DNA of 64,000 nucleotides from Hermatobates lingyangjiaoensis (lineage: Eukaryota > Arthropoda > Insecta > Hemiptera > Hermatobatidae), in assembly GCA_026182355.1 (NCBI GenBank), contig JAPFBL010000234.1, positions 558,001 through 622,000 on the forward strand. Direction: 5' to 3'. A program made the translations under genes and the position numbers. Within the stretch, counting starts at the first letter, position 1; each line of letters starts with the position of its first letter. Below are positions 3,322 to 60,665 of this stretch, in pieces. Under the pieces are notes generated by a model, which was given only the letters and a program-made list of their open reading frames with translations, made no database searches and was not told the DNA's origin.

Positions 3322-3418
3322 TATTTTCAATAAAACAACGACATGTTTCGGTCTCGTAGACCATCATCAGGCTAAGCGCCTACGAGACCGAAAAATGTCA
3401 TTGTTTTATTGAAAAAAA
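3322..3418. repeat. Palindromic hammerhead repeat, family A
   Basis: Two inverted arms (about 3324-3359 and 3380-3415) pair almost perfectly: TTTTCAATAAAACAAC opens the left arm and its complement closes the right. The loop holds a hammerhead core on the minus strand. The two arms look like head-to-head copies of the end of an HHR-bearing retroelement. Confidence 0.75.
3331..3376 (-). ncRNA. Hammerhead ribozyme, family A, intact core
   Basis: Read on the minus strand: the CUGAUGA box (3370-3364), one U, stem II GGUCU/AGACC with an ACG loop, then GAAA (3349-3346). The next bases, ACAUGU, are self-complementary (helix III) and are followed by C as the cleavage-site H17 base. GUUG can pair with the UAGC that precedes the core (stem I). 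All strictly conserved core residues are present. This matches a minimal type I hammerhead of the PLE/retrozyme type. Confidence 0.78.
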
Positions 3419-3420
3419 TA

Positions 3421-5394
3421 TTATTATTGTATATATTGTATATTATTGAATACATGGTATACAAGTGTGTATATATTGTATATTGCAGAATTATATATTT
3501 ACTATACTTGTACTGTCAAGTATAGGAAAAAAGTTTCTTTAAAAAATAAGTATAACTGTTGTACGTAGTCTACATTTAACTTTTTTGATTCAGTTCATTT
3601 TCTCCACTGGTGTTCAGCTTTATGTATTTCATTTCAGGTAGTGCTATGAGAGCCGTTGGAGGCAGCAACATCCAACTTGCAACCCGCTGCGTTTTGTTTT
3701 CTCTAGTATGATAAATACTAGTAAAACCGTAACAATATTCTTTCCTGTTAAGTTAAGGCAGTGTGTTTTTTTCGACAGCAGGAGAGCTGCGAATTTTCTC
3801 CATTTAAATCTTACGATTTTCTTAAGGAAATGTTTTCTAACTCAAGATGTTTTTAGCAGGTGAAAGGATCTCTCACCGGTGTTGCTGTATAAAATGAACT
3901 TACTGTTTGTTACCCTGCTTTGATGTTTTTTTTCTTTCTCTAGGTATTCTTTCCTTTATTGTTCATTTTGTTTTTTTAAACTTTTTTTAACATATTTTCT
4001 TTTATCTAGCAATTTTTTCCACTCCTCAGTTTTATCTTTCTTCACTTACTTTTTTCTTCTCAACCATTTGTCAACTTCATTTACAAAGTGTCTAATAGAC
4101 TTTTGTAAGATATTACGGTTCAATATTTAGTGTGATATAGACCAAAAAGACCTGTTTTGTGAGGTCCATTAAAGTACACCAAGAGTACTGTTGCATGTCA
4201 TCAGACAAGAAATGTGGTTATTCAGGTTATTCTTCTAGTATTTTCACAAAAAACATTTTAAAAACTGGTTTTTGTTATTTGTTATGGCATCAACAAAAGA
4301 ATCTTATGCAAGAATAACATAAAAACAGCTAAACACAGCAAGCAGGAGACCGAAATACAATCAACTTCACTATAGGTAAAATTTTTACTAACTCTTGCGT
4401 TATTAATTTAGTTAATTTATTTTTTCAAATTGTTGACGTCCTCACGGGACGTCACTATTGACAAGAATTTTCCTCTCTGATGACGTTTTAGGTGTGAAAA
4501 TCAAAAATATATGTGAGAATGTGACATTGGCGTTTGTTGTTTACAGTTTAACATTCACCTTTCTGTTATAGAAATATTCTTGTGAAGCGACTGTTGCATA
4601 TTGTTATCGGTTTAAAACCTGATACTACTATATTTTAATAATGATTTATAATTAAAACCATTGGTGAAATTAGAAACTATAAGTTAAGTAACACTTGGTA
4701 AATTTATAGGACTTCACCTATAATTTCACAGAGGATGGGTGAGCATTCGGCTCATCTGTTTTTCTCCAGCCGTTTTAGGTATAACTGACTACACTACTTC
4801 TTTCAATTGACAGTAATTGAAAGAAAATATTTTATTCGAAATTAATGTATATAACTATTAATACACAGGTAGCATTTTCTCATTAGTATAAATACATGAG
4901 TATTTACTTTATACTTCTTATCAAATTCAAATTCACTTGAAATTAAGCTTAGAAATGGGAAACCCATTTACCAGTATTCTGACAAAAATCCCAATATACC
5001 ATAATTATTATTATTTTTGACTCCTAAAAATATTAGTGAAGGCTGCTATTTTTAGATTAATTTTAGTTTTTGTAAGTGTACGTATACTCTAGAACTAGTG
5101 GAATTGTGTTAAATTTTAACAATGCTAATTAAAATCGTTAGTTTATGTATTTTATATTTGTATTATATTTACATAAGGTTACTTCCGTATAGTTCTAAAT
5201 AAGTTTTGTTTGATTTGTAATGATTTCTATCATTTTAATTAACTACAAAATTAAGTTATGCTTCTGTTTCTTTTATCATTTAAGATGTGAGTTTTGTGCT
5301 TTTCCTGGCCAGTTGCATTTGCTGCTTTATAAATATGTAGAAAAAAAGCTGAGCTGTGTTGAGGTAAGAGTGTAGATGGCTAAGAGGCAAGATT
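3421..5394. other. AT-rich intergenic DNA
   Basis: No coding or RNA feature supported. It holds T-rich tracts (about 3900-4060) and a short palindrome-like GACGTC...GACGTC pair near 4435-4455. Nothing identifies a gene. Confidence 0.5.
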
Positions 5395-5860
5395 GAGATA
5401 GGAAGCGGCCGGGCTGTTTGCGATGGCTATTTGTGGGTTAGGACGGCGGAGGCGTTTATTTCGGGAGGCGGGTCAGCAAGGGAATTTCTTGGGGGCGGTG
5501 GGCCGTGGTCAGGGAGGCGGCAACAGGTGCCCCCCCGGGGGCAGCTCCATTAAACAGCCCGCTCTCAATGAGAGCCTCTCCTTACCTCTGTCTCCATTCA
5601 TGGGAGTCCCTCGGGTCGATAGTGCCACGCTGACATCTACACTAGGGTCCCCTCTGGTAACCATCCACTCGCCCATTCACTTTGCCCATCTCCCCTTCCC
5701 TTCCTAAAATCCAGCCTAGTGACCTTTTAAGGGTCCTAAACGAGACCCTCATCCGACCCTTATCCGCCTTCTTCCTGGTTTCGTCTATAGACCTGTCTTC
5801 CAATCCATTTCCTTCAGTTCAGGAATTCAGTTTCTGCAATCCCTACACTTCTCTTTCTAT
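5395..5860 (+). other. GC-rich, CpG-containing block of unknown origin
   Basis: Base composition jumps sharply from the AT-rich surroundings: GCGGCCGGGC and GGACGGCGGAGGCG occur, and CCCCCCCGGGGG forms a near-palindrome at about 5531-5542. An open frame at 5423-5707 would encode 94 residues with an Arg/Gly-rich start (GRRRRLFREAG). I recognise no domain, splice structure or start context. It could be an insertion, a leader or first exon of an unseen gene, or the 5' part of another retroelement. The downstream part (5700-5830) is C/T-rich. Confidence 0.4.

Positions 5861-6480: not shown

Positions 6481-6512
<32 letters not shown>
6438..6512 (+). repeat. Family E hammerhead-repeat tail plus (TA)n
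   Basis: AATATAGTAGTGAGT (about 6441-6455) matches the 3' side of the family E hammerhead repeats near 16670 and 54760. It runs into a (TA)n microsatellite at 6482-6512. Only the end of the repeat is present. Confidence 0.55.
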
Positions 6513-6515
<3 letters not shown>

Positions 6516-6518
6516 AAA

Positions 6519-6581
6519 TGGGAAAACAAGACTAAGATCTTTCAACCGTAAAAAGCGGTCTTCGTCAGAGTCAAAACCCCA
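6519..6581 (-). ncRNA. Hammerhead ribozyme, family B, intact core
   Basis: Minus strand: stem I GACU, CUGACGA (6568-6562), stem II ACCG/CGGU, GAAA (6543-6540), self-complementary AGAUCU, U17, then AGUC pairing with GACU. An outer GGG/CCC pair extends stem I across an internal loop. Confidence 0.75.
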
Positions 6582-6591
6582 ACTATTTTGT

Positions 6592-6654
6592 TGGGTTTTT
6601 GACTCTGACGAAGACCGCTTGTTACGGTTGAAAGATCTTAGTCTTGTTTTCCCA
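6592..6654 (+). ncRNA. Hammerhead ribozyme, family B, reference copy
   Basis: Plus strand: UGGG and then GACU open stem I, with the core CUGACGA at 6605-6611. Stem II is ACCG/CGGU with loop CUUGUUA; GAAA is at 6630-6633. Helix III is AGAUCU and self-complementary, U is the H17 base, and AGUC then CCCA close stem I. Every invariant base of the hammerhead core is present. The short helix III cannot form a stable loop alone, so cleavage would be expected from a dimer. Self-cleavage itself is inferred. Confidence 0.82.
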
Positions 6655-6736
6655 TTTCTTATTGTGGTTTGATCATTGATTGTTTTTTCACGTGTTTATG
6701 TGAAATAACAATCAATGATCAAACCACAATAAGAAA

Positions 6737-6799
6737 TGGGAAAACAAGACTAAGATCTTTCAAACGTAACAAGCGGTCTTCGTCAGAGTCAAAATCCCA
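6737..6799 (-). ncRNA. Hammerhead ribozyme, family B
   Basis: Core CUGACGA (6786-6780) and GAAA (6761-6758) are intact, and AGAUCU and AGUC are conserved. One substitution weakens stem II. It is truncated by the (TA)n tract that starts the Penelope-like element. Confidence 0.7.
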
Positions 6800-6923
6800 A
6801 CTGACTCAGTTGGGTTATATATATATATATATATATATTTGGTTCTATTGTTCACCACCAATTTTTCATCTATCATCCCTTTAATTATTATTATTATTAT
6901 TATTTATTATTTTTTTCTTCAAG

Positions 6924-9197
6924 ATGCAGAACCCCACATCCTTCTGGTTGGACCAAATTTATTTTCTGTCACACAAAATTGCAAGGTGCACTGTGCACAT
7001 TGAGTTTCTCTCCCACTGCCTCCTCCTTAATATCCCACCGAATGGTTCAACTCTGAACCTGCCCCTTTCTGCCATTCCTCCAACCTTTCGTAAAGAAATC
7101 GCTATTTTTGGCTTCCAATGCTCATTAAATTTAACCCGCCTCACTCTCTCCAACTACCAGAAAATTCGGAGTTCCCTTTTTCATAAGTTAACCTCAACTC
7201 TTAATCTTTTGCTAAAAATTTCTTCCTCCCACCTTCCCTTGTGTCTTCAACACATGAGAAGTGCCGAAAACTTACTCTCAATCAAGAGAAAGTCCTCCTT
7301 GATCAAACTTTCCAATCTCTGCCGCAGCTATCTGGACCTGGGCCTTGGCCTTCCCCTTATAATACCCAACCTCACCAACAACTGCACTCCACTATTTCCC
7401 ACCTGCCCCATCGACACCCCAGTCCCCACCAAAAGTCCCTTGGGTTTGATTCCTACTTCTGAACCCACCTTACCCAACTCTCCTCATTCACCCAATCTTC
7501 CCTCAAACTTACTCCCTACTCCACAACTGAACCTTTTTGAAAATCTCACCCCTGTCACTAACTTAACTCCAGTCCCGAACCCACAACGAACTCCTCTGAA
7601 CAGTTCACCCGTTTCCACAGCCACTGGTTCTTCTCCCTACAACTCCAACATTTTCTGTAATTTGTCCTCCCACTGCCTCACTGTCGATGAAAGGAACTTA
7701 CTTGCTAAAGGTCTCTCTTTCTGTCCCACCCCTAAGGTCCAACGGGTTAAGCTCCTGGAGGATGTGCAGATGTTTTGCAGATCCCTCCGATGGCGGCAAT
7801 TCTGGAAATCCTCCGTCCATTCGAATCCTGCCGCAAGCTCTACTCCCAGAGTTACCCTCCGTAAGTTTAAACCTCTTTCCACTAATGAGCCTCCACCCCT
7901 TCTAGCCTCTCATCCGTTAGAGCAATTCATCTCCCAACTTCTCAACAGGGTTTCTAACCCTTCTTTCCTTGATAGCCTTAGACCCCCTGACAACCTATCC
8001 CTCTCCGAACGAAGGGCTATTAATAACTTGGTTAATAATAGTAATCTGTTAATTATGCCAGCTGACAAGGGGTCCACGGTTGTACTCATGGATCGTGATC
8101 ATTATGAAAGCGAAGCACTGAGGCAGCTGCGAGACCCATTGTTCTACCAACCTCTCTCCTCCGATCCCACACCTAATTTTCACAAGAAGTTGGTCACCCT
8201 GCTCCGTTCCTATTCCAATTCAGAGGGTCTCACTGATGAAGACCTTAAGCTCCTTATCCCCAATACTCCCCGATGTCCCATATTCTACATCCTCCCCAAA
8301 ATACACAAACCTTATCACATGCCCGACAATCCACCTCCTGGAAGACCTATTGTTTCATCCTATAAATGTCTTACTGAAAGGATTTCAGCCTTCGTAGACT
8401 CAGTTCTACAACCTTTAGTAAGACTCCAACCCTCCTACTGTAAAGACTCATTCCACTTTCTGGAACTCCTCAAAAACCTATCCCTTCCTGCATCCACCCC
8501 CCATCCCATTCTCCTAGTGACGATGGACGTGACCTCGCTTTACACCGTTATCAAACACGATGAGGGCTTAGAATCCTTACGACACTTCCTCACTTCCAGA
8601 CCTCTCCCCCATTTACCCTCGACTGACTTTATAATCTCCCTAACTGACTTTGTCCTCAAACATAATTCCTTCCGTTTCAAAGATGACTTCTACCTGCAAG
8701 TCAGAGGAACTGCCATGGGAACCAGGATGGCTCCCTCTTTCGCGAATCTTTTTATGGCACATTTAGAAAATAGTTTCCTTCACTCTTACCACTTGCTCCC
8801 CTTATTTTACACCCGTTTCATTGACGATATATTTTTCATCTGGCCCCACGGTAGTTCCGAACTTGACTCCTTCCTTCTGAATTTTAGAACTTTCTGCACT
8901 TCTGTTTCTTATACCCACAACGTTTCAGCCACCTCTATGACCTTTCTTGACATCGACATTACCCTCCAGGGCAACAACCTCATTACCTCCGTTCACTCTA
9001 AACCCTCAAACCCACACCAGTACCTCCACTTTAATAGTTGTCACCCTCCCCACATAAAGAAATCTATCCCCAGATCCTTATCCATCCGAATCCACCGTAT
9101 TTGCAACCGACTCCAGCAGAAGAACCTGCACCTCAACTCCCTCAGAACCAAGTTCCTGGAGCGTGGTTATCCGCCATCGTTACTGGAAAGAGACTGA
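6924..9197 (+). CDS. Penelope-like element reverse transcriptase
   Basis: The 757-residue frame starts at an ATG after a T-rich leader. Residues 1-100 form the PLE N-terminal region, and 150-245 a Pro/Ser/Asn/Thr-rich linker. Residues 246-270 include NLLAKGLSFCPTP, matching the PLE motif upstream of the RT. RT motifs follow: LIMPADKGSTVVLMD (376-390), ILPKIHK (456-462), GRPIVSS (473-479), motif A MDVTSLYT with Asp535, motif B GTAMGTRMAPSFANLFM (595-611), motif C RFIDDIFFIW with Asp634/Asp635, and FLDIDI (674-679). The HQYLH...SCHP...K thumb-like motif (698-713) is typical of PLEs. All catalytic aspartates are present. PLE RTs are related to telomerase RT and prime reverse transcription at target DNA. 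The frame ends at TGA just after RGYPP, where PLE proteins normally continue into the endonuclease. Confidence 0.92.
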   Translation: MQNPTSFWLDQIYFLSHKIARCTVHIEFLSHCLLLNIPPNGSTLNLPLSAIPPTFRKEIAIFGFQCSLNLTRLTLSNYQKIRSSLFHKLTSTLNLLLKISSSHLPLCLQHMRSAENLLSIKRKSSLIKLSNLCRSYLDLGLGLPLIIPNLTNNCTPLFPTCPIDTPVPTKSPLGLIPTSEPTLPNSPHSPNLPSNLLPTPQLNLFENLTPVTNLTPVPNPQRTPLNSSPVSTATGSSPYNSNIFCNLSSHCLTVDERNLLAKGLSFCPTPKVQRVKLLEDVQMFCRSLRWRQFWKSSVHSNPAASSTPRVTLRKFKPLSTNEPPPLLASHPLEQFISQLLNRVSNPSFLDSLRPPDNLSLSERRAINNLVNNSNLLIMPADKGSTVVLMDRDHYESEALRQLRDPLFYQPLSSDPTPNFHKKLVTLLRSYSNSEGLTDEDLKLLIPNTPRCPIFYILPKIHKPYHMPDNPPPGRPIVSSYKCLTERISAFVDSVLQPLVRLQPSYCKDSFHFLELLKNLSLPASTPHPILLVTMDVTSLYTVIKHDEGLESLRHFLTSRPLPHLPSTDFIISLTDFVLKHNSFRFKDDFYLQVRGTAMGTRMAPSFANLFMAHLENSFLHSYHLLPLFYTRFIDDIFFIWPHGSSELDSFLLNFRTFCTSVSYTHNVSATSMTFLDIDITLQGNNLITSVHSKPSNPHQYLHFNSCHPPHIKKSIPRSLSIRIHRICNRLQQKNLHLNSLRTKFLERGYPPSLLERD

Positions 9198-9880
9198 TCC
9201 CTGCGAATTTATCCGTCAACCCTCCTTCCGTCTCCACTTCCCCGGTGAACGAGTCTCCCCTCCTTGTTACTACCTTCTTCCCCGGTATACACAAACTCAA
9301 ACGCATTATCAAAGATCTGTTCCCCATCCTATCCTCTTCTCCTTCCACGTCGACTATTTTCCCCAGCCAACCCCGCCTCTCATATAGACGTTCCCCCAAC
9401 CTTGGCAACCTCTTTTCCCACAGAGACTTGACGTCCAGGCGCGTCAACCACCCGTCTGTGGGCGCTAAGAGTTGCGAAAGGCGGGGGTGCCTGACCTGTC
9501 CGCTTCTCAACCCCCTTTCACACTTCACTCCTTCTTCCCATAACCAGTCCTTCCCTGTTGCTAAGGACTGCTCATGTACATCCAAAAATTGTGTTTACAA
9601 ATTGGACTGTACTCGTTGTGATGCGTTCTACGTAGGACTGTCCTCTAACAAGCCCAGCCTCCGTATGAACGGTCATAGAGCATCCGTTAACAACAACTCC
9701 AATTTACCTGTCGCCATACACGCCAAATCCCACGGTCTGTCTTTTAACGACTGCTTCAGTGTGCAGATTCTGCGTCAGATTCCCCCTGGTGATAATACCG
9801 TGACCCTTAGAGCCTCTGAGGAGGCTCACATCTGGTTGCTCGGGGCGCGCAGTGCACCTGGACTTAACCTTAAAAGATAA
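9191..9880 (+). CDS. PLE C-terminal Cys-rich linker and GIY-YIG endonuclease (-1 frame)
   Basis: This frame is open from 9038, but recognisable protein begins near 9191, where the upstream RT frame stops. Numbering from 9038: SPLLVTTFFPGIHKLKRII (73-91) and YRRSPNLGNLF (116-126) match PLE interdomain sequence. Cys146, Cys151 and Cys154, with Cys178, Cys180 and Cys185, suggest a zinc-binding linker. The GIY-YIG nuclease starts at VYKLDC (186-191) and FYVG (197-200). The catalytic Arg/His region is LRMNGHR (208-214), a likely catalytic Glu is in EEAHIWLLG (261-269), and APGLN (273-277) closes the fold. In the family this enzyme nicks target DNA to prime reverse transcription. No canonical slippery heptamer is visible at the junction, so a 1-nt indel is likelier than programmed frameshifting. 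Confidence 0.85.
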   Translation, partial: RLIPANLSVNPPSVSTSPVNESPLLVTTFFPGIHKLKRIIKDLFPILSSSPSTSTIFPSQPRLSYRRSPNLGNLFSHRDLTSRRVNHPSVGAKSCERRGCLTCPLLNPLSHFTPSSHNQSFPVAKDCSCTSKNCVYKLDCTRCDAFYVGLSSNKPSLRMNGHRASVNNNSNLPVAIHAKSHGLSFNDCFSVQILRQIPPGDNTVTLRASEEAHIWLLGARSAPGLNLKR

Positions 9881-10630: not shown

Positions 10631-10680
10631 TTCTCTTTTCTCCTGAAGACGGATTACCCGAAAATTTGAGTCTGTAAGTG
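10631..10680 (+). ncRNA. Hammerhead ribozyme at PLE 3' end, family F
   Basis: The core CUGAAGA (10643-10649) is followed by C, a short GG/CC stem II and GAAA (10660-10663). Self-complementary AAUU is helix III, U is H17, and GAG pairs with the CUC directly before the core (stem I). The following CTGTAAGTGTG matches the family F repeats at 16.4 and 31.9 kb. Hammerheads are known in PLE terminal repeats, and this one ties family F to the PLE described here. Confidence 0.75.
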
Positions 10681-12300: not shown

Positions 12301-13340
12301 TGTCCTTGTTTGCAGTAATTATTGTATTACTTTTATAAATAATGAATTTGGGTCGTATATTTTGTTCAGTTTTATATGTTGTGTGCGTAGTTTTTTGTAT
12401 TCCTTAAGACAGAGGACATGGGAGATAAGTGATTTCACTACTCAGTGCAGAATGGAGCCATTATTTATGTTTCATTGGTTTGTTTAAAGTCTGTAGGTTC
12501 TAGCAGACTAAATAATTATATATTATTTTTCAGTTTTATGCAGATTTGTGTGTGTGTGTGTGTGTGTATTCATGTGTATATGTTTATGTGGGCGTATTCG
12601 TGCATATGTGTATATTTGTCTGTGTGCGTATGTGTGCGCGCAGATAATGCATTTAAGTTTATTTGAAATTGGACGCTTGTTTGTTGAAACAGTTGACGTG
12701 TTATTGACTTAGTTACAACTTCACTCTAATCACTACGCCACGCCCCTAAACATTCTTCCATTCCGCCTCACATTTACCTTTCTTACGTATGTTTATCTTC
12801 TTATTCGCTAATTAATAAAGTCCAAATTCTCTCTTGTTCGCAGTCTTAAAACTTTTCTGCTTCATTTTCAAAATAGTTTCCTCTTATTAAAACTCTGCCC
12901 TAAATCAAATAAAAGCCCTTCTTAATTAACATCTAGTTCAATTTCAACTTCCCTCCTCTCATTAATTACCTAACAATCTATCTTGATTAAAACAAATTTC
13001 ATGCGGGTGAAAATTATATTAATGTTAAATAAATAACATCTTATTGATTTTAATTTGATCCTTTCATTAATATTATTTCAAATTTTAATTAATGTAATAT
13101 TAATAATAGGAACTTTCAACCCAGCATTTCTTGTTTAACATAGTCAATAAAGTTAATGGATATACAAGTTGGATTAGAAGAGTAAATTATTCATGAAAAT
13201 TCAGTATATGATAATGTTTATAACACTGGTAGAAATTACAATGACTTAGTAACCAAATAAATGAAATTTAGCAATTTTATTTAGCAAAATATTTCTGTTT
13301 TGCTATAAAAAATAGTGATGTGAAGTAATATATATATATA
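12301..13340. other. AT-rich DNA with (TG)n microsatellite
   Basis: (TG)n lies at about 12546-12569, followed by interrupted TG-rich sequence to 12640. The open frame at 12445-12666 simply translates this repeat. Nothing else was recognised up to the (TA)n at 13327-13341. Confidence 0.6.
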
Positions 13341-13367
13341 TCAATGATCAAACCACAATATGAAATA

Positions 13368-13428
13368 TGGGAAAAAAGACTAAGATCTTTCAATCGTAAC
13401 AAGCGGTCTTCGTCAGAGTCAAAAACCT
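13368..13428 (-). ncRNA. Hammerhead ribozyme, family B, intact core
   Basis: Minus strand: GACU, CUGACGA (13416-13410), stem II with one mismatch, GAAA (13391-13388), AGAUCU, U, AGUC. A (TA)n tract and the shared TCAATGATCAAACCACAAT flank lie just upstream. The palindrome partner seen in other copies is absent; the next 1.1 kb is unrelated sequence. Confidence 0.75.
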
Positions 13429-13432
13429 AACT

Positions 13433-21044: not shown

Positions 21045-21600
21045 GCAACACGTGCCATATTCATTCACTTTAAATTGCTATAGAGTTATTATTCTTTGAT
21101 AAAAGAAAATAAAAATGTAAATCAATTATATAGTATTTACTATTGCTTATATCAGTTATAACAGTAGAAATAAACATATTGTGTTAAAAACATATTTATC
21201 TTAGAAATAAAAATGTTAAGATAATATTTGGTGCTTTGAATGTTTGATCTGTTTGCAGCACGTAAGGTTGAAAAGTTGATCACCCTTTCCGTTGAAGTGA
21301 TTTCCCATGGGTAACTGCATTCAAAGGGCCGCGATCTTTGCTCTTTGATTTTTCTTTGTCCCCTTCCACCCCTCACCCCTACATCCATATCTCTCAACTT
21401 ATTTATCTTTCAATTTCTCACATTTCATGTCATTCTTGGATCTCATTTCTTTTGTATGACAAAACACTTTACTAACCATTTATTATTAATATTTCAATAT
21501 TTTCGTTTATTGTCTCAAAGTGAATTATATTTTACAGAAATGAAATTTTAATTTACATATAAACAAAAGTAAATCAAGCAAAAGAATTTGACAGATTAAA
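21045..21600. other. AT-rich intergenic DNA
   Basis: Small opposing frames (21152-21397 minus, 21345-21551 plus) have no recognisable motif. Confidence 0.45.
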
Positions 21601-21651
21601 CTTGTTTTTCAATATTTCGACACTTACCTGGTCGTCGTCAGGGGAACAAGT
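21601..21651 (-). ncRNA. Hammerhead ribozyme, family J, intact core
   Basis: Minus strand: CUUGUU opens stem I, CUGACGA (21641-21635), an extra C, stem II GAC/GUC, GAAA (21618-21615), self-complementary AUAU, U as H17, and then AACAAG pairing with CUUGUU. All invariant core bases are present. No inverted partner is seen here; a degenerate family B unit follows at 21.7 kb. Confidence 0.75.
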
Positions 21652-21697: not shown

Positions 21698-21870
21698 ATA
21701 AATGATCAAACCACAATAGGAAATGGGGAAAAAAACTTCTGGCGAAGTTGGGTTTTTGACTTTGACAAGGACCGCTTGTTATGGTTGAAAGATCTTAATA
21801 TTTTTTTCCCCATTTCATATTGTGGTTTGATCATTGATTGTTATTTCACGTGTTTATGTGAAATCTTGTA
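21698..21870 (+). repeat. Family B hammerhead repeat, degenerate
   Basis: It has the family B flank AATGATCAAACCACAATAGG, then a truncated left arm and a plus-strand unit with UUGACAA in place of CUGACGA (about 21761-21767). GAAAGAUCUU is retained. The TTATTTCACGTGTTTATGTG hairpin follows. The core mutations predict no activity. Confidence 0.75.
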
Positions 21871-31820: not shown

Positions 31821-31823
31821 TAT

Positions 31824-34370: not shown

Positions 34371-34423
34371 TTATTATATATAGATATATATTTATATTTT
34401 TTTTTTATATTATATATATAAAG

Positions 34424-34615: not shown

Positions 34616-34617
34616 AA

Positions 34618-40377: not shown

Positions 40378-40402
40378 TCAATGATCAAACCACAATAAGA
40401 AA

Positions 40403-40465: not shown

Positions 40466-40476
40466 ACTGATCAGGT

Positions 40477-40539
40477 TGGGTTTTTGACTCTGACGAAGAT
40501 CGCTTGTTACGGTTGAAAGATCTTAGTTTTGTTTTCCCA
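40477..40539 (+). ncRNA. Hammerhead ribozyme, family B, intact core
   Basis: UGGG, GACU, CUGACGA (40490-40496), stem II with one G-U pair, GAAA (40515-40518), AGAUCU, U, AGUU and CCCA. The last stem I base pair is G-U rather than G-C. Confidence 0.77.
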
Positions 40540-40847
40540 TTTCTTATTGTGGTTTGATCATTGATTGTTATTTCACGTGTTTATGAAAAATCTTTTTATT
40601 CATATATATTGTGCATAATTCTTTGATTTTATAGCCAAATTTGTGTCTGTGACATTTCTGGTTCAATAATTAATAAAATCGTCACAAATTCCACCTTTTA
40701 GGGTCCTTAATTTTTAGGCAATTTCTTTGATTTTAGATTTACTTGAGTTACTTTTCACTCTTCTGAACAAACTAGGTCTTCAATTAAGGAAGGGAAAAAT
40801 GAAAAAGAAAAGTCTTGAGAAGAAAAGGTCTTCAAAATGAAAAGGAA

Positions 40848-44092: not shown

Positions 44093-46847
44093 TGAAATAA
44101 TTTATTTCGTCTACTTATTAAAGTAACAGTGGTTATTTAGAGTAAATACTCGGTTGGTCATCCTACTGGATAAGCCTCTAGTAATCACAGTTATAACTGT
44201 GGTAAGTCCAACATTTACATTAATTATTCTTGCATTCGATTGCTGTAATCCACTATATAGTTCCTGAATGAATACATCAATGTATTAGAGCAAATTTAAT
44301 AGAGTTCAGAGCATATTACAAAAAGCCTCTTCATATCCATCCATGTAGCAGTCTAGACTGACTCATTTAATAAATAAAGAGTGTTCTATTTTTTCAACGA
44401 GAAATTTTTCAAAAATTTTTACATTTTATAATTGTGAGAGGATTTTTGTACAAATTGTACTCTTTTGGTTTTGGTATTGTTTTTGGTGTTGAACAAAATT
44501 TGTTTCCCTAAAAGCTTTATAGTATTATCATAACCATGACTATTTGTTTGCCAAATTTCACAATTTTATGTGGGATTTGATAAGTAGCGTGGTGAAAAAC
44601 TTTTAAAATCATTCCCCGTCTGCCTATACTAAGACTTAAACAAGAAGAAAAAAAAAAAAGGAAAATGAAATCAGGAAACAATAAAAGTGTAAATACTTAG
44701 AAATTTTCCAATTAAGTGGATCTTGACTACTATATTTTATTAACGTTAAACTTATAGTAAAGTTAATACATTGTATTCTAAACAAATTATCTATAGATCA
44801 AGTAATTTCTGGAAGCAACAAGAAAAAAAAAAGTTGTTGTATCTTGAAATTCAATTATAATCGTTCTTTTTAAATTTTTTTTTTTGCTATAAAAATATGA
44901 AATTTATTTGAAGTAAATAACGCTAATCAATTTTTATATATTTTGAGGATAAAGAAGTATATCAAAGTTTTTTCTTGCACTGAACTTATATAAGTGCACT
45001 GAGGTTGAATTAGAGCAAGAAAAAAAACCCAGGAAATATCATTTGCTTTAAAATAAACAGCAGAAGATTGTTTTATGTGATTTCTGCATGAAATACTATG
45101 AGAAATATTTGCTCTCATAATAAATGAAGACGCATTTGTAAAGGTATAGTGGGGGTAGTTTTCCCAGTAGAATGAATGTAAGTGGACATTTGGACCCTAT
45201 AGTTGGATGCATGTCTGAACACGTCAGTCTTATCCTCGCTTCGCTAGAGAGAACAGAAATTACGTCTCATCATCCTAAGGTATACCTTATGTTTTATAGT
45301 TAATAGGTCATTTCCTATGATATTATTTGTCATCATTTTCTGTATATATACTTTTACATGCATTATATACAATATTTTACGCACAAAACCTGAATTAAAA
45401 GTTAAATGTAGGTTATTTTTCTTCTTTTTGATCCATCAATATCAAACAAAGCATTAGTTTATGGAAATTTTTAGTTTAACGGTTAGAATATTTAAAGCTA
45501 ATCTATAATAATTACTTTGTAATACTTAAATAAAATTTATTACGATGACATTAATAATGCATAATTAAATTTCTTAGTCCAGTTGTTTATTGGAGCTGGC
45601 TTATCTCCTCTGTGTATTTTGTGCAACTTTTCAACTATTTGAAACAACATTCTGCAAATGAGATCTGAAATTTATTTATTTCAAGTAAATTAGGTGGTCT
45701 TTAATTCGTTCCTGTTAGATGATCAATAAATTCTTGATATAGATATAAAAAATGTAAGATATTTATCTAATTAATAAAATACAAAAGGTTTTATAAAAAA
45801 TTGTAGTTATAATTTTCTAGTCGAATGCTTGATTTAAGCTTATCTTGTTTAACCTTTGAATGTTAAGCCTTAAGCTTTCCACCATCTTTGATTCCCGTCT
45901 GCTCTCTTCTTCTCACTCCCTCTTCCTCCCTGTCATACACTTTTCCCTCTCTCCACTATGTCTCTCTCTCTTTCTTCTGGTCCATCTCACACCCTATATC
46001 TCGCTGTCCTCTCACACTTCACCCCTCATATATGTAACAATGTGTCAATTGTATTGGTTTTTTTTGTTTTGTTTTCCTCATTTTCTCTAAAGCAGAGAGT
46101 TTATTATTCACCTCTTCCCTTATACAAATCAAATATATTGATTCAGGTTTTTACAATTACAATTATTCAAAAATATATTAAATATTTTTACATGTACCCA
46201 TACTATATATGTGTTTCTCTATACTTTTCTTTAAATAGAATTATGAAAATTATTCAAACTGTTTACATTATTAGTTTATGACAGGTCATTATATCAAAGT
46301 AGAAGCCTTTTGAAATCACTATGCATGCATTCCAGGGTATCATATGTGTTCACTTCGTAGCCGCATATAAAATAAACTACGATGTTATTGTAACTAACCT
46401 ATATTTAAGTCCAACTATTAATATTTCATTATATTAACTTCATTGATATTTCATTTTTCAGAGAGGCATTTCTATTTTGTAAAATAAACAGAAAGTTATT
46501 AATTTTTCATATAAATTTCTAAATGTGAGTTGTTTACTGGTTTCCTCGAGGCAATACAGATAGTGATTGGTATAGCTGTTAATCTATAGGCTTATTTTTA
46601 TATATCACATAACTGTGTTATAATAGAAGTGGTATTACTACAGCAGTTGCAACACGTTTGTAAAACCATAGTAAAGATTTTGTTTTACAAAATAATCGCC
46701 TACAGGATAACATGGCTTTTGATTCTATAGCCAAAGAGTCTCTTACAAAGCCATCAGTAATTTAACAGGGCCAATAGTTATATTAAATTTGAAGTAGTTT
46801 ATCTAACTTCCTTCTATATTGAAGATTTAAGTCAAAGATTTTAATTG
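44093..46847. other. AT-rich DNA with a polypyrimidine tract
   Basis: C/T-rich sequence at about 45880-46030; the overlapping frames at 45860-46281 are its translations. No gene was recognised. Confidence 0.5.
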
Positions 46848-47289
46848 TCTTGAAATAAAGACGAAATGTTGGCAAAAAGGTGATTCCGTATATTAACCCT
46901 GACAAAATTCCAAGAAGAAGAAAAAGTGTTTGTTAGTAATTTGTGGCCAAGAAAACAGTACCGTATAATTGTTAAGCTAATTCCTCGGTGATTTGATGGC
47001 ACTTACATTTTTGTTGTTACTTTTATCTGACGTTTATTTCTCCAGATAGGAATATTTTGAGTTTTTAAAGAAGATTTAAGCCAAAGATTTCTCTTTAAAA
47101 ACTCAAAATAGTTCTATCTGGTGAAATAAACGTCAGATAAAAGTAACAAAAAAAATGTAAGGGCCATCAAATCACCGAGGAATTAGCTTAACAATTATAC
47201 GGTACTGTTTTCTTGACCACAAATTACTAACAAACACTTTTTCTTCTTCTTGGAATTTGGTCAGGGTTAATATACGGAATCACCTTTTT

Positions 47290-47327
47290 GCCAACATTTC
47301 GTCTTTATTTCAAGACATCCTCAGGGC
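47290..47327 (-). ncRNA. Hammerhead ribozyme, family C, intact core
   Basis: Minus strand: GCC, CUGAGGA (47324-47318), U, stem II GUCUU/AAGAC, GAAA (47300-47297), then UGUUGGC. GCC/GGC forms stem I. Helix III is AUGU here against ACGU in the third copy, so this copy has one change in the palindromic segment. Confidence 0.72.
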
Positions 47328-47512
47328 TATAAACTAACAAAAAAACAATAAACAATGGACATTTGTCATTTCTACTTTAGAAACATCATAACAAATTCAA
47401 AAAACTTAACTCTTGAAGCTAGCCTTGAGTATTTTTTTTGAATTTGTTATGATTGTTTCTAAAGTAGAAATGACAAATGTCCATTGTTTATTGTTTTTTT
47501 TGTTAGTTTATA

Positions 47513-47550
47513 GCCCTGAGGATGTCTTGAAATAAAGACAAAACGTTGGC
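47513..47550 (+). ncRNA. Hammerhead ribozyme, family C, G12 lost
   Basis: GCC, CUGAGGA (47516-47522), U, GUCUU/AAGAC, then AAAA in place of GAAA (47540-47543), ACGU, U, GGC. The single G-to-A change at G12 should inactivate it. Together with the minus-strand copy it implies an ancestor with every core base intact. Confidence 0.6.
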
Positions 47551-47612
47551 AAAAAGGTGATTCCGTATATTAACCCTGACCAAATTCCAAGAAGAAGAAA
47601 AAGTGTTTGTTA

Positions 47613-50100
47613 ACAATTATATACATCTTGTAATATATAACCAAAGAGTCCATTCCTCATAATTCAGTATTACATTAAGTTAATAATGATTCATAAATAT
47701 TAGAAAACCTACATCTTATATTAACTTTTGTTGAATGGTGAACAATATAAATTCATTAGAGCATTTTTTTAGTCAAATTCATCATACCATGGAAAGCATT
47801 TGAAATTTATGTTCATTGGCGCTGATTCTTTACATGTAAGAAAATTATTCTTCTTAGATTTCATGTAGGTCATTACATAATTTAAAAATTTTTCATTAAA
47901 CCTGTAAACATCAATTTTGTTTCAGTGGATTCACTCAAGAAATGTCTAAATAATGCAACACAATGAACATAAAGGAAAACAAATATAATTAGTATAGCAA
48001 GTAAATCATAAGTCCAGTATCAATAATCAGTATTTATAGCTTTATGTTGCTTTGCCATAATTGAAATTCCATGAATTTTTTTAATAGATTTCTAATTTTT
48101 TGTTCAATTTTTGTGTGCAAAATTTCATTTTTTTTTTGAGCCTGTTAGCGTCAAAAGAGCATTTTCTGAAAACAGAAAAAGTATTCTAACGCCACTTTGG
48201 GTAATGTAATTCTTAAAAAAAGTAATGTTCTATTTTTAGGGATAGTTTCATTCTGAGCCGTCAAACAGTATGTCTTGTAACGCTCTCACAATTTTTCATA
48301 TTGAATTATAAGTCAAAATAGTTACATTTTATTGAAAAAAAAATATTTAAATATTTTTGAATATTGATTTTAAACCTGTTGGCTTAAAAATTTGAGGACT
48401 TTTTTCTTTTATTACTGTTGTACCCTCAAAGGTAATGTCTAAATTTTAAGACTCTCGAATTAGTAGTTTAGGAGAAAAAAAATGTTAAAAACAGGTTTTT
48501 TGTCAAAAAAAGTGACATTCCCATCACGCATAATTACTCCCAAACTATACAGCTCATCTACACTAAGAGGCCTATTTTTGTGTAAATATCAATTTGAACC
48601 ATCAAAAATGCTAGACCGCAGCGTGTCCACAATCTTTGGATAACCCCCCCCCCCCCCCCCCAAATACACACAGACATCATCGAAAAAACGTCATAAAACG
48701 ACTTCTGGGACCTCATGTAATTCCGTCAAAATCTCGATATTGAATTTATTCATGATCACTATACTTTATTTATATAAAGTAAGAGGGGCATTATGAAACA
48801 TTTTTTAATTTTAGAAAATGTTTTTGAACACTAAACGACTTACTATAATGAATAAAATTTTGTCAAAAAACTAAAGCTAAAATTAGCAATTAACAAAGAA
48901 AACTTTAATAGAATTCATATTACATCAAAGGGAAATAAACCTATTAAAACTGAAAATTCATCTTTGAATAATGTATCACTTTGTTTAGTTGTCGAATTTA
49001 TTTTCATGTGTAAGGGATGGACAGACTACACGGCTTGTTTTATCATAGCATAGATTTATGTGCCAAAATAAAGAAGAAAAAATGTTATGAAGTAGTTTTA
49101 ACTCCATATGCGACGTCATAACAGAGTTTTCCAAAGTCAACTGTCAACAGCTTAGACTTTATACTGCCTCTAATTCCTTAAGTCAAACAACTTTGAAAGC
49201 TTTAAAAATCTTTATTGAATACAAACTGGTATAAAAACACAACCATTACAAATAAATAATGGGTTACTTTAAAAAAAATTATGCTAATTATATCCTTTAA
49301 TTAAAAGAGAAAGCATTTTCCTTTTTACAAAATTTATCAAAATATAATCTTTTCATAAATTAATTTCATAAATAAAATCTCAATCGAGATTGTAAAGAAA
49401 AAAATTAAGTTCATTTGACCTTATTGCATAATTAATTGTTTAATATTTTATCACAATGGTTTAACAAAAAAGTGATTTCCTTTATAGTTTAATAATTTTA
49501 GTAAGAATGTTACCTTGCAATCAGTATAAATATGTAAATTAAAGGGTGAATTAGTGTTATAGTATATATAGACATGGCGAATTTATTCATTTCTGTCGAG
49601 TATTATTTTTTGAAACATGCAACGCTGAAGGGAATGAATAATTACCTAACGTTTAAGCTGGATCCAGTCATTACTAACTAGCTTTTTTCATGCAAAATGT
49701 CCACTCTTAACAAAAAAAAGTAAGGAATACAAAATAAAAACTATGAATTATTTGGCTTCTTTAATCATTTGTAATTATGTCGTGTCACGAACAACACTAT
49801 TATTGAAATAATAATATTGACAACCTTGATTTATCTATTGGTTTTCTATTTTGTTTTATCCAGCAATTAGTAAAAGTGATATAATTTATCAGGTATTAGA
49901 TAAATGTATACTTAAAGAAATGAATCATTTTTATGTTCAATACTATATTATGCTATTTCTTCGAAGGTGTTATCTTTGTCTATTAATATGTAATTGAACA
50001 TTTATCGAATAGAGTTTTTGGCTTTAAATCCCATTTAAAGAAATGGTCACTGGCTCTAACTTCTTTCATTCAGCAGTCATTGTTTTTTTTCTGTGAAGAC
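47613..50100. other. AT-rich DNA with an 18-bp poly-C run
   Basis: A poly-C tract lies at 48644-48661. No gene or other feature was recognised. Confidence 0.5.
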
Positions 50101-54500: not shown

Positions 54501-54688
54501 TTTGACCAAAATATTAGTTTATGTGTGAAGCATATTTGTCGATTTGATTTCTATATTTAGTATTCAAGATTTTTCCCTTGATTATCTTTATATATATTTT
54601 ATTTATTCATATATGTAACCAATTAATGAAACGATTCTTCGAAACTGAATAACTAGAATTTTCAAAAGAACACAGAATTAAATCACTA
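51569..54688. other. AT-rich intergenic DNA
   Basis: No gene recognised. The frames at 52732-53108 overlap in two phases and have no known motif. A short, less AT-rich stretch near 53330-53400 is unidentified. Confidence 0.45.
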
Positions 54689-54771
54689 ACTCACTACTAT
54701 ATTTTGATGAAGTCGACACGGAATCGGAAAGAAACTATTCGACGACGAGGAATCGAAATATAGTAGTGAGT
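54689..54771. repeat. Family E hammerhead inverted repeat
   Basis: ACTCACTACTATATTT (54689-54704) and AAATATAGTAGTGAGT (54756-54771) are perfect inverted arms. On the plus strand UCGACGA replaces CUGANGA, followed by C, GA/UC, GAAA and self-complementary AUAU. The minus-strand unit ends ATCAAAATATAG. Both cores are degenerate. Confidence 0.65.
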
Positions 54772-55049
54772 ACAGTATTTTTCCTGAGAAATCTTTTGAA
54801 ATACGATTTAATATAAATATATATATATAAAATATGGGAGAAATTTAAAGTATCGACCGTGAAATAGAAATAAAATCAAAGTTTATCAGGACTCGTTCAG
54901 TTCTTCAAATTCAAATTAAACTCTCATTGTCAACATTTTGGTTTTTATTTAAAATGCTTTTCATAGGCAGATGTATGCAATTTTGAAACAGAAAAAACTA
55001 AGTATTACATTAGAAATTTTATTACAAAAAAATAGTCTGTGGATTTGAA

Positions 55050-56545: not shown

Positions 56546-56708
56546 AATATATATATATATATATATAAATTCTTTACATGTTTTAAGATATTTGAGGGTT
56601 TTTGGTGTGTAAACATTAAAAAACCCTCAAAAATCTCAAAAACATATGAATAGAGTGGTCAAAAAAAGAACAACATGGTAAATTCTTTATATATATATAT
56701 ATATATAT
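56546..56708. repeat. (TA)n - inverted repeat - (TA)n cassette
   Basis: (TA)n tracts at 56546-56567 and 56689-56708 enclose an inverted repeat with TTGAGGGTTTTT (56592-56603) and AAAAAACCCTCAA (56618-56630). Confidence 0.75.
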
Positions 56709-56739
56709 TTAGGTAACTCACCACAAATGAATGAAGATA

Positions 56740-56781
56740 GTCGCTCTGAGGCCTTTCGTTTTTACGTCGTCAGAGAGCAAG
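56740..56781 (-). ncRNA. Hammerhead ribozyme, family G, minus copy
   Basis: CUUGCUCU opens stem I, CUGACGA (56773-56767), C, short GU/AC stem II, GAAA (56757-56754), self-complementary AGGCCU, C as H17, AGAGCGAC. Stem II is only 2 bp, so activity may be low, but all invariant core bases are present. Confidence 0.65.
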
Positions 56782-56830
56782 TGAATACAAGTTGTGAACA
56801 CAACAAGTTGTGAACACAACTTGTATTCAC

Positions 56831-56871
56831 TTGTTCTCTGACGACGTGAAAACGAAAGGCCTCAGAGCGAC
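56831..56871 (+). ncRNA. Hammerhead ribozyme, family G, plus copy
   Basis: UUGUUCU pairs with AGAGCGA (7 bp including G-U pairs) as stem I. CUGACGA (56838-56844), C, GU/AC, GAAA (56854-56857), AGGCCU and C17 complete the core. It is the inverted twin of the minus-strand copy. Confidence 0.68.
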
Positions 56872-57107
56872 TATCTTCATTCATTTGTGGTGAGTTACCT
56901 GAATATTTATGTCACGTGTTATTGTGACAATTTTGTATATATATATACATAAATTCTTTCTATAAATATTATTATATAATTAATATAATAATTATATGTA
57001 GTATACATATAATAATTATTATATACATTCTATATATATATTTATTATATATAAACTTTATTTATATAATGGACCTCTATATATCACCGTTTAACCACAA
57101 TAAGAAA

Positions 57108-57166
57108 TGAGAAAAAAGGCTAAGATCTTTCAACCGTAACAAGCGGTCTTCATCAGATTGAAATCT
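57108..57166 (-). ncRNA. Hammerhead ribozyme, family B variant with CUGAUGA
   Basis: Minus strand: CUGAUGA (57156-57150), stem II ACCG/CGGU, GAAA (57131-57128), AGAUCU, U, AGCC. The core is intact with U7 instead of C7. The stem I 5' strand has changed (CAAU), so stem I is weak in this copy. Confidence 0.68.
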
Positions 57167-57835: not shown

Positions 57836-57871
<36 letters not shown>

Positions 57872-60534
57872 GAGGGAGAGCAGAAGGGTGAGATCAATGG
57901 TTTAAGCCGAGAGGAAGAGATTGGCTAGCGAAATGCTTCCACAGAATTTGATTACCCTTAGTTATTCGCTCCAGAATACTGAATACCCTATTTCAACTTC
58001 AATTTAGCGAATTGTTTCTATTTGCAAAACTATTACACGTATGTTGGAATTATTGATTATCTAACATATACTATAGGGTTCAATAATATTTTAATTAAAT
58101 GGAATATTAATATAATAAATTGAATTTTTGTTAAAATTAAAATTGAATATTACGAAAAATGTTATTGCAATTTCTATTTGAAGTAGTGATAAATAATACC
58201 TTCATACCGAACAATGGTTTTTCTCTAAAATATACATTTCCGAGGATCACTATTTATTAATTTGTTGGATGGGACAAGATCTTTAACTAAAAATACATGG
58301 TATTGTAACACAAATACACATAATATATCTGTAATGCTAAAATGCATACAATTGTTAAGAAACGAAAATATATCAATAACATTAATATGAATATTATAAC
58401 TGGAGTTATCTGGAGAATATAATTCAATTCAATGCTGTAGACTAATTCAAAAATAGATAAAAATGAGCGTCAGCTATATTTAATTGATATAATAAACAAT
58501 AAAAGATAAAATTTCTTTTGCGACGATTTGTTAAGAAAATTACTTCTGAAAAAAATTTTTATAGATGTATTTGATATATTGTATAGAATTGGAAACTGTA
58601 AATCTCATCAAAGAGAAGTTTATGACGTTTTTAACGCTATGATAATCGATTTAAGTGATAATAATTCAGTAATTCTAGTGAAGGTTACTTTAAAAGCAAT
58701 CTATAGAGGAATAACTCTGAAAAGTCAACAGATTGCAATGTGGTGTACGCCTTGGCATGAGCACATGCGCACTATGATCTAGTACGCTGTTGGAGTGTTT
58801 CTAAGTTTATAACGAAGAAATATATTTTATTAACAATTTGTTAATTTGTTTTGTACATTAGTCTACCGAATAAACCTGAAAGAGCAATTAGCAATTGTCA
58901 ACATTTGTATCTAACCTGAAAATTGTAAGGATTTATAAAACTCAAATAATGATAATAAAATAACGAAATATGAAGTCAAGTATCCAAAGACTAGAAAAAC
59001 GTGTTTTGTCATTGAGAAACAAGTTCATAATTTATTGGAAATTCAAAAGGTAGGACCTTTAGTTTAATGAAGGATGTTTTGTAATGCTGTTTAATTTAAA
59101 AAAATCTATAGAGTCAATCCATACAACTTTCAGTGTGGCATGGTAATGAATAAAATCGGCACAAACTAAACACCTTGCGTTACTCAACCAACCCATTGAT
59201 CAATCATAATTCTCAAGGTTTTACAATTATTTTAAAGGCTCCAGATGAGTCACAGATTTGTCTGTTTACAAAGCAGCTTTTGGTCTGAAAAACCACTTCT
59301 TCTATCGGTAATTAATGAATTCATTTATTTATGTTATATTTTTATTTTATTTATTTGTATAGCATTTCTTTTTTTTTCAAATTGTTTGAAAATAACGTTT
59401 TTCTTCAATTTCCTTATTATCTTTCTCTATCTTATGAATCTAGTAATGCTGGAATAACATCATTTCCTGGCTACTTAAGCACAACTAGTTTCGCGGAGGA
59501 ATACGAGCAATAATAATATCTAATAGTTGGGCACATAAATATTTCCATATTGTTACAACTGTCTGGAACGGATAAATGTTTTACCTTGTTGACTGGTGTT
59601 GCTTGCTGTAGTCCAGTCGTTACAAAACGTTGCCTACCTTTAACAAAGTTCCTCTTGAGTCCAATATCCTGAATTTCCGGAAGCATCCAAGACTGATCAA
59701 TCTGATGAATTCATCATCAAAATGCGCATAAAGACGGTTTATGCTAATCATAATAAAGATGGTTATTATTCACATCGTCTGCGTTACTAACAACCAAACT
59801 TCATTCAATTTAATTAACTACAGGCTAGCCTTTGTATTTGTATTATAATATTATTATTAATAAAATATGTATTACAATTTGTAATAGTTTTTATAAGCAT
59901 TGATTTTTATTTTTATCTTATTTAGAAATTTTAAAAAATTCTTTTAGGATATGTGAGAAATATTCAATTTAGAGTTTAAATGAACGATGTTAAAAAAGGG
60001 AACGCTTTAAAATTTCAACAGAAAGTTGAAAATCTCTTGAATGGAGGTTCTATTTCACTTCAACTAGTTAAAGATAAAGCTATTCGAAGTAGGAGAGTTC
60101 TATCCCATGGGACAAACTTAGATGGCTTTCTGTTCTGACTTTTTTACTAGTTCCAGTTTAGTAAAATTTAGAGACATTTAGAAAAGTTTATGCACTTAAA
60201 TATGTCTTTTTTACATTACAAGTGAGACAATTATTTGAGAGAGATAACTTTTTACAGTTTTTTTCTCTAAAAATATATACATTTTAACATAAATTTATTG
60301 TGGTCTTTTATAAAGTTTAAAAGATACACAAAAGAACAAGCTGAACACAACTCTGAAACGAGCGATATTTTGACCAATAGGTTTGTTTACTTAAAAAAGG
60401 ATGGACTTTTATTGATCGACTGTTATTAAAATATGGAAATATCAAATAAGCTATCGTTCCAATTTACTGCTAGTTTAGAATGGTTGTTTTAACATTTAAG
60501 AGATGATTTATAAATGTCCAAAGCACAGTTCAAA
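57167..60534. other. AT-rich DNA with (GA)n
   Basis: (GA)n at about 57839-57880. No gene recognised; short frames at 58528-58782 and 59245-59513 carry no known motif. Confidence 0.45.
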
Positions 60535-60665
60535 ATCAGGAAAACACGAAGATCTTTCAACCGTCACAAGCAGTCTTCGTCAGAGTCAAATCTTAAATCA
60601 AAACTCTGACACAGGGCCTGTGATCTTAGTCTTTTTTTTCTGATTTCTTTCTGTGGTTTGAATAA
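60535..60665. repeat. Family B hammerhead repeat, variant flanks
   Basis: On the minus strand CUGACGA (60583-60577), ACUG/CGGU and GAAA (60558-60555) with AGAUCU are intact. The plus-strand partner has lost stem II and GAAA (CTCTGACACAGGG then TGATCTTAGTC). The outer flank TTTCTGTGGTTTGA is family B-like. Confidence 0.7.

What the first reader, a model, noticed from the sequence alone, without database searches (positions are those of the whole stretch)
3331..60590. At least ten families of hammerhead ribozymes with self-complementary helix III in one 64-kb window
Each family has a CUGANGA-type box, a stem II and GAAA, or close derivatives. What follows GAA is always a short palindrome before the H17 base: AGATCT (B), ACATGT (A, I), ACGT (C, D, K), AATT (F), ATAT (E, J), AGGCCT (G), ACGCGT (H). 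The flanks of the families are otherwise unrelated. Minimal type I hammerheads with tiny helix III that cleave as dimers are known from PLEs and retrozymes. Such diversity in one locus suggests many PLE or retrozyme lineages were active in this genome.
Basis: partly seen in the sequence, partly recalled or inferred. Interest (0 to 1): 0.92.

Follow-up and report, generated by a model that had tools for sequence, protein, structure and literature searches.

The report
Penelope retrotransposon ends inserted as palindromes
This stretch of a 910-million-base, probably animal, genome holds about ten families of hammerhead-ribozyme-like sequences, at least two of which lie at the ends of Penelope retrotransposons here or next door, and many sit as back-to-back mirror-image pairs, likely because the element copies its RNA from both strands of the DNA it cuts; cutting by the ribozymes themselves is untested.

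Summary
A dimer-aware descriptor finds far more hammerhead-like cores than shuffled sequence gives; seven families in the window have intact CUGANGA and GAA, each with one extra nucleotide before stem II, and Rfam did not match them. They do not look like retrozymes. Five lineages in window and flanks have a Penelope-like element (PLE) ORF beside the motif; L001 shows the classical layout: inverted pLTR, pLTR, ORF, pLTR. In family B, 116 of 153 copies lie in head-to-head pairs (neighbours within 60 nt: 58 head-to-head, 13 tail-to-tail, 3 direct). Pairs usually have one arm with a ~30-nt tail and one without: 18 of 20 classifiable unselected B pairs, 20 of 21 pairs anchored on a tailed arm, 21 of 25 pairs in other families. 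Of 44 unselected arms none ends within 2 nt of the predicted ribozyme cut. Best reading: twin priming, the PLE reverse transcriptase extending both target strands from two start sites flanking the tail, on RNA not cut by the hammerhead. Minimal PLE hammerheads, inverted pLTRs and tails are known; a one-tail-per-pair rule counted across lineages was not in the papers I could read. Catalysis is untested.

The parts
3317..3422 (-). Family A: palindromic insertion with hammerhead-like core (box CTGATGA at 3370-3364, extra T, stem II GGTC/GACC, GAA, ACATGT, C)
6511..6583 (-). Family B arm (hammerhead box at 6568)
6590..6711 (+). Family B arm with tail (box 6605-6611, extra A, stem II GACCG/CGGTT, GAA, AGATCT, T)
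6700..6801 (-). Family B arm, tail-to-tail with the previous one
6924..9194 (+). PLE reading frame, reverse transcriptase (RVT_1 E 3.5e-10)
9179..9877 (+). Same PLE in another frame: C-terminal GIY-YIG endonuclease region (39% identity to P0002)
10643..10675 (+). Family F hammerhead-like core in the 3' region of the window PLE (CTGAAGA, extra C, GG/CC, GAA, AATT, T)
13340..13431 (-). Family B single copy, no tail
21600..21651 (-). Family E core (CTGACGA, extra C, GAC/GTC, GAA, ATAT, T)
21698..21867 (+). Family B head-to-head pair, left arm 5'-truncated without tail, right arm with tail
26739..26926 (-). Family B head-to-head pair (left arm with tail)
31820..31974 (-). Family F2 palindromic insertion (one arm with tail); core degenerate here
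32600..32660 (-). Family I, degenerate core before GAA ACATGT
32798..32832 (+). Family C core (CTGATGA, extra T, GCTATA/TATAGC, a further C, GAA, ACGT, T, GGC)
32940..33060 (-). Family D repeat: stem and GAAACGTTGGC but no intact CUGANGA box
34166..34364 (-). Family B head-to-head pair
34419..34611 (-). Family B head-to-head pair with a different junction
36073..36252 (+). Family H palindromic insertion (box ATGATGA, GAA, ACGCGT); left arm with tail
40378..40595 (+). Family B head-to-head pair (40378-40467 minus without tail, 40475-40595 plus with tail)
46846..47618 (+). Family K: alternating inverted copies, one tail-to-tail and one head-to-head; intact core at 47324(-) (CTGAGGA, extra T, GTCTT/AAGAC, GAA), degenerate GAA in the plus copy at 47516
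54651..54801 (+). Family N head-to-head pair, no intact core found
56701..56935 (+). Family G head-to-head pair; cores at 56773(-) and 56838(+) (CTGACGA, extra C, 2-bp stem, GAA, AGGCCT, C); right arm carries the tail hairpin TGTCAC..GTGACA
57093..57163 (-). Family B single copy
60510..60700 (-). Family B head-to-head pair (diverged copy)

Best explanation
Five of the hammerhead-like families in this window and its flanks sit beside the coding region of Penelope-like elements, the others are likely the terminal repeats (pLTRs) of further such elements, and the paired copies are likely twin-primed insertions, in which the element's reverse transcriptase would extend both strands of an AT-rich target from two start sites flanking a ~30-nt tail, on RNA probably not yet cut by the ribozyme, the two cDNAs then being joined head to head. 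Shown: the cores and their excess, the extra nucleotide, the PLE ORFs beside five lineages, head-to-head orientation, two discrete outer ends about 30 nt apart with usually one of each per pair, varied inner junctions, near absence of ends at the predicted cut site. Inferred: that the outer ends are reverse-transcription starts, that the usual inner end of B is the RNA 5' end, that both strands are primed in one event. Untested: that the hammerheads cleave, alone, as dimers or with the PLE protein.
For: PLE identity: the window ORF has RVT_1 and a GIY-YIG-like C-terminus and 82 homologues at E<=0.001 among 7992 scored. HHR-ORF links by tblastn: F, window 6924-9877 then 10643; B, L004 2107-2711 then 3113; L1, L001 6546(-), 7207(+), ORF, 9829(+); M, L010 2325-4376 then 4846; P, L002 1307-480(-) then 212(-). 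The L1 ORF is open for 802 codons from an ATG in helix III. Of 6 fetched 1-kb stretches upstream of PLE ORFs, 1 has an intact core (L047). Covariation over 17 family representatives: pair 10.1-11.1 G-C in 16, G-U in 1; pair 2 of four Watson-Crick types; first helix I pair standard in 15 of 16 (pairing of stem II was required by the descriptor, its variety was not). Orientation: B neighbours within 60 nt 58 head-to-head, 13 tail-to-tail, 3 direct, in the unselected part 22, 5, 2; other families 25, 0, 0 within 150 nt; PLE matches within 2 kb of each other, read off the table: 9 head-to-head, 0 other. Two ends: tail score bimodal; unselected B pairs 22, classifiable 20, one long and one short in 18, permutation p 4e-4; selected 36, 33, 28, p 7e-5; in 21 pairs holding the tailed anchor the partner is short in 20; other families 21 of 25, p 3e-4. 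Arms of a pair share variants at two diagnostic sites in 84 of 90 comparisons against 69% shuffled: one event per pair; inner junctions vary: many events. In vitro a PLE protein (PAc) cleaves and extends both strands, starts internally at two sites bracketing the tail, and hammerhead mutants do not change insertion (PMC11167929, main text). Arm 5' ends: unselected 44, of which 22 at unit position 1-3 and 0 at 49-53 around the cut 50|51; selected non-anchor partners 51, of which 22 and 1.
Against: Exceptions to one tail per pair: 2 of 20 unselected, 5 of 33 selected (3 long-long, 2 short-short), 4 of 25 in other families by script; of these four, two clearly and one plausibly show a tail on one arm by eye. 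The tail expressions were written after seeing the copies. PAc in vitro showed no difference of start site between strands, so strict pairing needs a further cause. Target-site duplications: 7 of 46 pairs have a match of 10 nt or more (mismatched-flank control 2.1% of 190), but two of these are the tail of a neighbouring element and others are AT-rich; three look clean (L005, L029, L034). Snap-back self-priming of one cDNA with a fixed stop would give a similar product. Most families lack a linked ORF in the sequence held. 13 tail-to-tail B neighbours, and the K palindrome at 46846-47317, need another explanation.
Confidence: 0.68

Rival explanations
1. Self-priming: a single cDNA, or an antisense transcript, folds back on itself at the head and is copied, giving head-to-head palindromes; the second copy would stop about 30 nt before the start of the first.
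For: Proposed for Adineta Penelope elements because head-to-head junctions hold palindromes (PMC3846280, discussion read). Arms of a pair are closely alike.
Against: A plain fold-back copies the whole arm and predicts equal outer ends, but 18 of 20 unselected pairs have unequal ends with a fixed 30-nt difference. Of those 18 pairs the tail-less arm reaches further inward in 9, the tailed arm in 4, and 5 are equal, so neither arm is always the first copy. The 2013 version needs an antisense template.
Confidence: 0.2
2. Retrozymes: small non-autonomous tandem repeats spreading through circular RNA cut by hammerheads.
For: Type I hammerhead-like cores with very short helix III, AT-rich units.
Against: Hardly any direct neighbours: 3 direct against 58 head-to-head in B, 0 against 25 in other families; PLE ORFs beside five lineages; arms run through the predicted cut site.
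Confidence: 0.03
3. MITE-like fold-back DNA transposons that happen to carry the motif.
For: Palindromic units with AT-rich flanks.
Against: Inner junctions vary, outer ends are unequal in a fixed way, single-arm and PLE-body versions share the same outer ends.
Confidence: 0.03
4. The conserved motif is a PLE RNA signal (protein binding or priming hairpin) descended from a hammerhead but no longer catalytic. This can be true together with the best explanation.
For: One extra nucleotide in every intact family; Rfam did not recognise the copies tested; no end peak at the cut; PAc hammerhead inactive without protein (PMC11167929).
Against: Core nucleotides and stems of varied sequence are kept in many lineages, which points to selection on the fold; PAc does cleave with protein; insertions of one or two nucleotides next to the box occur in known alignments (PMC10085705, passages).
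Confidence: 0.25

Closest known systems
Penelope-like elements with inverted pLTRs and tail (Adineta vaga Pen2a, PMC3846280; Anolis PAc, PMC11167929)
   Same: RT plus GIY-YIG ORF, direct pLTRs, an inverted pLTR, an optional ~31-nt tail on one of the inverted pLTRs, AT-rich targets; in PAc a hammerhead at the start of the ORF
   Different: Here most copies followed are pairs of element ends without ORF, in eight family groups, and the one-tail rule can be counted
Small hammerhead variants of PLEs that cleave as dimers (Lunse et al. 2017; Cervera and de la Pena 2014; titles and citing passages seen, papers not held)
   Same: Type I core, very short self-complementary helix III, PLE association
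   Different: One extra nucleotide between A9 and 10.1 in all intact families here; whether those papers describe it I could not check
Metazoan non-LTR retrozymes (PMC7229834, part of the results and passages)
   Same: Type I hammerheads, dimer action in some
   Different: Retrozymes are direct tandem repeats without linked ORF; these are inverted pairs and PLE ends

Membership tests
Penelope-like element | Telomerase-like RT domain in the ORF | tested here: met
   RVT_1 E 3.5e-10 and homology to PLE proteins; the telomerase kinship itself was not tested
Penelope-like element | GIY-YIG endonuclease downstream of RT | tested here: met
   39% identity to the EN region of P0002; Pfam GIY-YIG only E 0.18, below cut-off, for the window fragment
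Penelope-like element | Direct pLTRs around the ORF plus inverted pLTR | tested here: met
   L001: 6546(-), 7207(+), ORF 7235-9640, 9829(+); not seen complete in the window
Penelope-like element | Optional ~30-nt tail on one inverted pLTR | tested here: met
Penelope-like element | Target-site duplication in AT-rich DNA | tested here: inconclusive
   38 of 46 pairs with TATATATA in a flank; 7 of 46 with a repeat of 10 nt or more, two of them artefacts
Hammerhead ribozyme (type I) | Conserved core CUGANGA and GAA with stem II | tested here: met
   seven families in the window, 17 representatives over window and flanks
Hammerhead ribozyme (type I) | Stem II directly adjacent to A9 | tested here: not met
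   one extra nucleotide in all intact families
Hammerhead ribozyme (type I) | Match to a Rfam hammerhead model | tested here: not met
   none at gathering score or E<=10; the genome search with RF00163 found nothing, but its control genomes did not ring either
Hammerhead ribozyme (type I) | Self-cleavage at H17 | not testable with these tools
   needs RNA
Metazoan retrozyme | Direct tandem repeats of 150-450 bp with one hammerhead each | tested here: not met
   3 direct against 58 head-to-head neighbours in B, 0 against 25 elsewhere; no hit in arrays with units above 100 bp
Metazoan retrozyme | Circular RNA | not testable with these tools
   needs RNA

The most novel reading that the evidence does not exclude
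Penelope-like reverse transcriptases insert by a two-start, two-strand reaction: at each target one DNA strand is extended from the outer side and the other from the inner side of a ~30-nt hairpin tail, on RNA whose hammerhead has not cut, leaving palindromic element ends across the genome that record each event; the hammerhead therefore serves another step, such as separating tandem transcripts or removing the start codon.
Probability: 0.5. Interest if true: 0.78.

Novelty: new variant of a known kind. Interest (0 to 1): 0.62.

Why it matters
[quoted passage not shown] The 2013 work left antisense self-priming against sense copying undecided (PMC3846280); the 2024 in vitro work showed both-strand extension and left the later steps to be validated. 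Countable palindromes with one tail each, in many lineages of one genome, turn both questions into tests on sequence: which end is which start, and whether ribozyme-cut RNA is ever the template. They also warn that a scan with Rfam's hammerhead models can miss such copies, as it did here.

Tried and rejected
Rfam at gathering score and E<=10 gave no hammerhead; its 44 weak matches, none at gathering score, are mostly microRNA models on the palindromes. Descriptors without the extra nucleotide gave one B copy with an exact box. MAFFT of ten families did not align stem II well, so no covariance model was built. The first tail classification used strict thresholds (17 unselected pairs, 8 classifiable, 7 discordant, p 0.09); it was redone with S<=8, L>=13 after seeing the bimodal scores and with a wider copy search; both are reported. 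Expected more 5' pLTR hammerheads in PLEs: only 1 of 6 fetched upstream stretches has an intact one. An inference I made in a draft, that PAc has the same extra base, does not follow from its text and was dropped; so was the claim that the L1 ORF must start in helix III (see full report).

Papers: PMC7229834 (outline, part 1 of 3 of the results, passages), PMC11167929 (main text), PMC3846280 (passages, discussion), PMC7761336, PMC6155905, PMC6466107, PMC10085705 (passages). Cervera 2014, Lunse 2017 and the Terminon paper are not held. Literature searches.
Full report
What is there. The window (G000 contig C234, 558001-622000, of a 910-Mb assembly in 1629 contigs) is AT-rich and repeat-laden. 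It is eukaryotic and probably animal: the named homologues of its PLE protein are from a leafhopper, frogs and a snail (common names recalled). A canonical hammerhead regex finds one copy. With exact box, stem II of 3 bp, GAA and a self-complementary stretch, one extra nucleotide gives 8 hits against 0.01 in 100 shuffles, and 0, 2 or 3 extra give 1, 0 and 0; six of the 8 are B copies, the others A and E. The neighbouring 109.5 kb repeats this, 22 against 0.02 in 50 shuffles. The single zero-extra hit in each set is a mutated B copy. Over 17 family representatives picked by me from the descriptor hits of window and flanks, the extra base is T in 9, C in 6 and A in 2; the first stem II pair is G-C in 16 and G-U in 1; the second is of four Watson-Crick types; the first helix I pair is standard in 15 of 16 counted, one (R) left out. 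The descriptor itself asked for a paired stem II, so the pairing is partly by construction, but the variety of sequences is not. One- or two-nucleotide insertions next to the box occur in known alignments (PMC10085705), so the extra base alone is no claim of novelty.

What it belongs to. The window has a PLE: RT in 6924-9194, the GIY-YIG region in another frame at 9179-9877, a perfect 272-bp duplication in its 3' region, and core F at 10643. In the flanks, PLE coding sequence stands upstream, in the same orientation, of B (L004), M (L010) and P (L002), and L001 has the textbook order inverted pLTR, pLTR, ORF, pLTR with three near-identical cores. Of six 1-kb stretches upstream of genome PLE ORFs, one has an intact core (L047) and one begins with an inverted PLE 3' end (L042). 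The window's PLE family is recent: 28 of 91 listed matches are at least 98% identical.

How the copies are arranged. B was followed through 153 copies: 61 unselected (window, L001-L011) and 92 in L012-L041 without L015, which is the window copy. Neighbours within 60 nt are 58 head-to-head, 13 tail-to-tail, 3 direct; in the unselected part 22, 5, 2. Outer ends fall into two classes about 30 nt apart: a short one after GATCAT or GATCATTGAT, often running into (TA)n, and a long one after a hairpin tail TTTCAC-GTGTTTAT-GTGAAA. Unselected pairs: 22, of which 20 classifiable, 18 with one long and one short arm, 2 with two short; permutation p 4e-4. L012-L041, chosen through a near full-length tailed arm: 36 pairs, 33 classifiable, 28 one of each, 3 long-long, 2 short-short; for the 21 pairs holding the anchor the partner is short in 20. 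Seven other family groups: 25 head-to-head pairs, 0 tail-to-tail, 0 direct within 150 nt; by regular expressions, written after viewing the copies, 21 one of each and 4 short-short, p 3e-4. Of the four, L010 6224 and window 54709 clearly and L018 1371 plausibly have a tail on one arm; L013 976 has none. Farther pairs (L001, L007 3887/4131, window K) fell outside the 150-nt limit; the K palindrome 46846-47317 is tail-to-tail. G, G2 and G3 have the tail hairpin with other stems and nearly the same loop. Among the 91 PLE matches, nine pairs within 2 kb are head-to-head and none otherwise (read from the table).

How it likely works. A pair is one event, because its arms share variants in 84 of 90 comparisons against 69% when shuffled (two diagnostic sites only). 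The events are many, because the inner junctions differ. PAc, a purified PLE protein, cuts and extends both target strands and starts inside the RNA at two sites that bracket the tail (PMC11167929). Two cDNAs started from opposite target ends, one from each site, and joined at their far ends give the structure seen. Of 44 unselected arms 22 end at unit position 1-3 and none at 49-53 around the predicted cut 50|51; of 51 non-anchor partners in the selected loci 22 and 1; the 21 anchors are full length by choice. In longer copies position 1 is preceded by TTCA, giving TTCAGTTGGG, which resembles an initiator (recalled), so I infer that it is near the RNA 5' end. Ribozyme-cut RNA is thus rarely the template, in line with the PAc mutants. 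In L1 the ORF runs open for 802 codons from the ATG in helix III, and another in-frame ATG lies 18 nt upstream in stem II (sequence); the predicted cut falls after both, so cleavage would remove the start codon; PAc is similar, with the cut 26 nt into the ORF. Whether that is its use is open.

What remains weak. Catalysis is untested. Self-priming with a fixed stop is not excluded. Families A, C, E, G, H and K have no linked ORF in the sequence held. The one-tail rule has exceptions. The first, stricter classification gave only 8 classifiable unselected pairs and p 0.09.

Known or new. Minimal PLE hammerheads, dimeric cleavage, head-to-head inverted pLTRs and the tail are in print. A one-tail-per-pair rule counted across lineages, with uncut hammerheads, was not in the papers I could read (searches); key papers were not held.

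Noticed in passing
window 9920-10465: Perfect 272-bp tandem duplication in the 3' region of the PLE, so probably very recent.
   Followed up: partly
window 50179-51236: 149-bp unit in 7.1 copies at 98% matches; no hammerhead hit in it.
   Followed up: no
window 20520-21044: 131-bp unit in 4 copies with an inverted repeat in the units; no hammerhead hit.
   Followed up: no
window 258-55417 (e.g. 24600-24800, 40895-41084, 55116-55417): Dispersed repeat of 90-200 bp in about ten copies at 71-81% identity, containing a TTTATTCACCTC..GTGAATAAATC stretch; not identified.
   Followed up: no
window 32058-34754, 54913, 56442; L010 6544: Family D repeat with stem and GAAACGTTGGC but no intact CUGANGA box, distantly like family K; perhaps a decayed lineage or one with a changed box.
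   Followed up: partly
L002 480-1749: PLE coding fragments on opposite strands 38 nt apart, head to head.
   Followed up: no
window 6691-6711; L022 387-402: Tail-to-tail joints of B lie on the tail hairpin, as if the hairpin were a recombination or re-insertion point.
   Followed up: no
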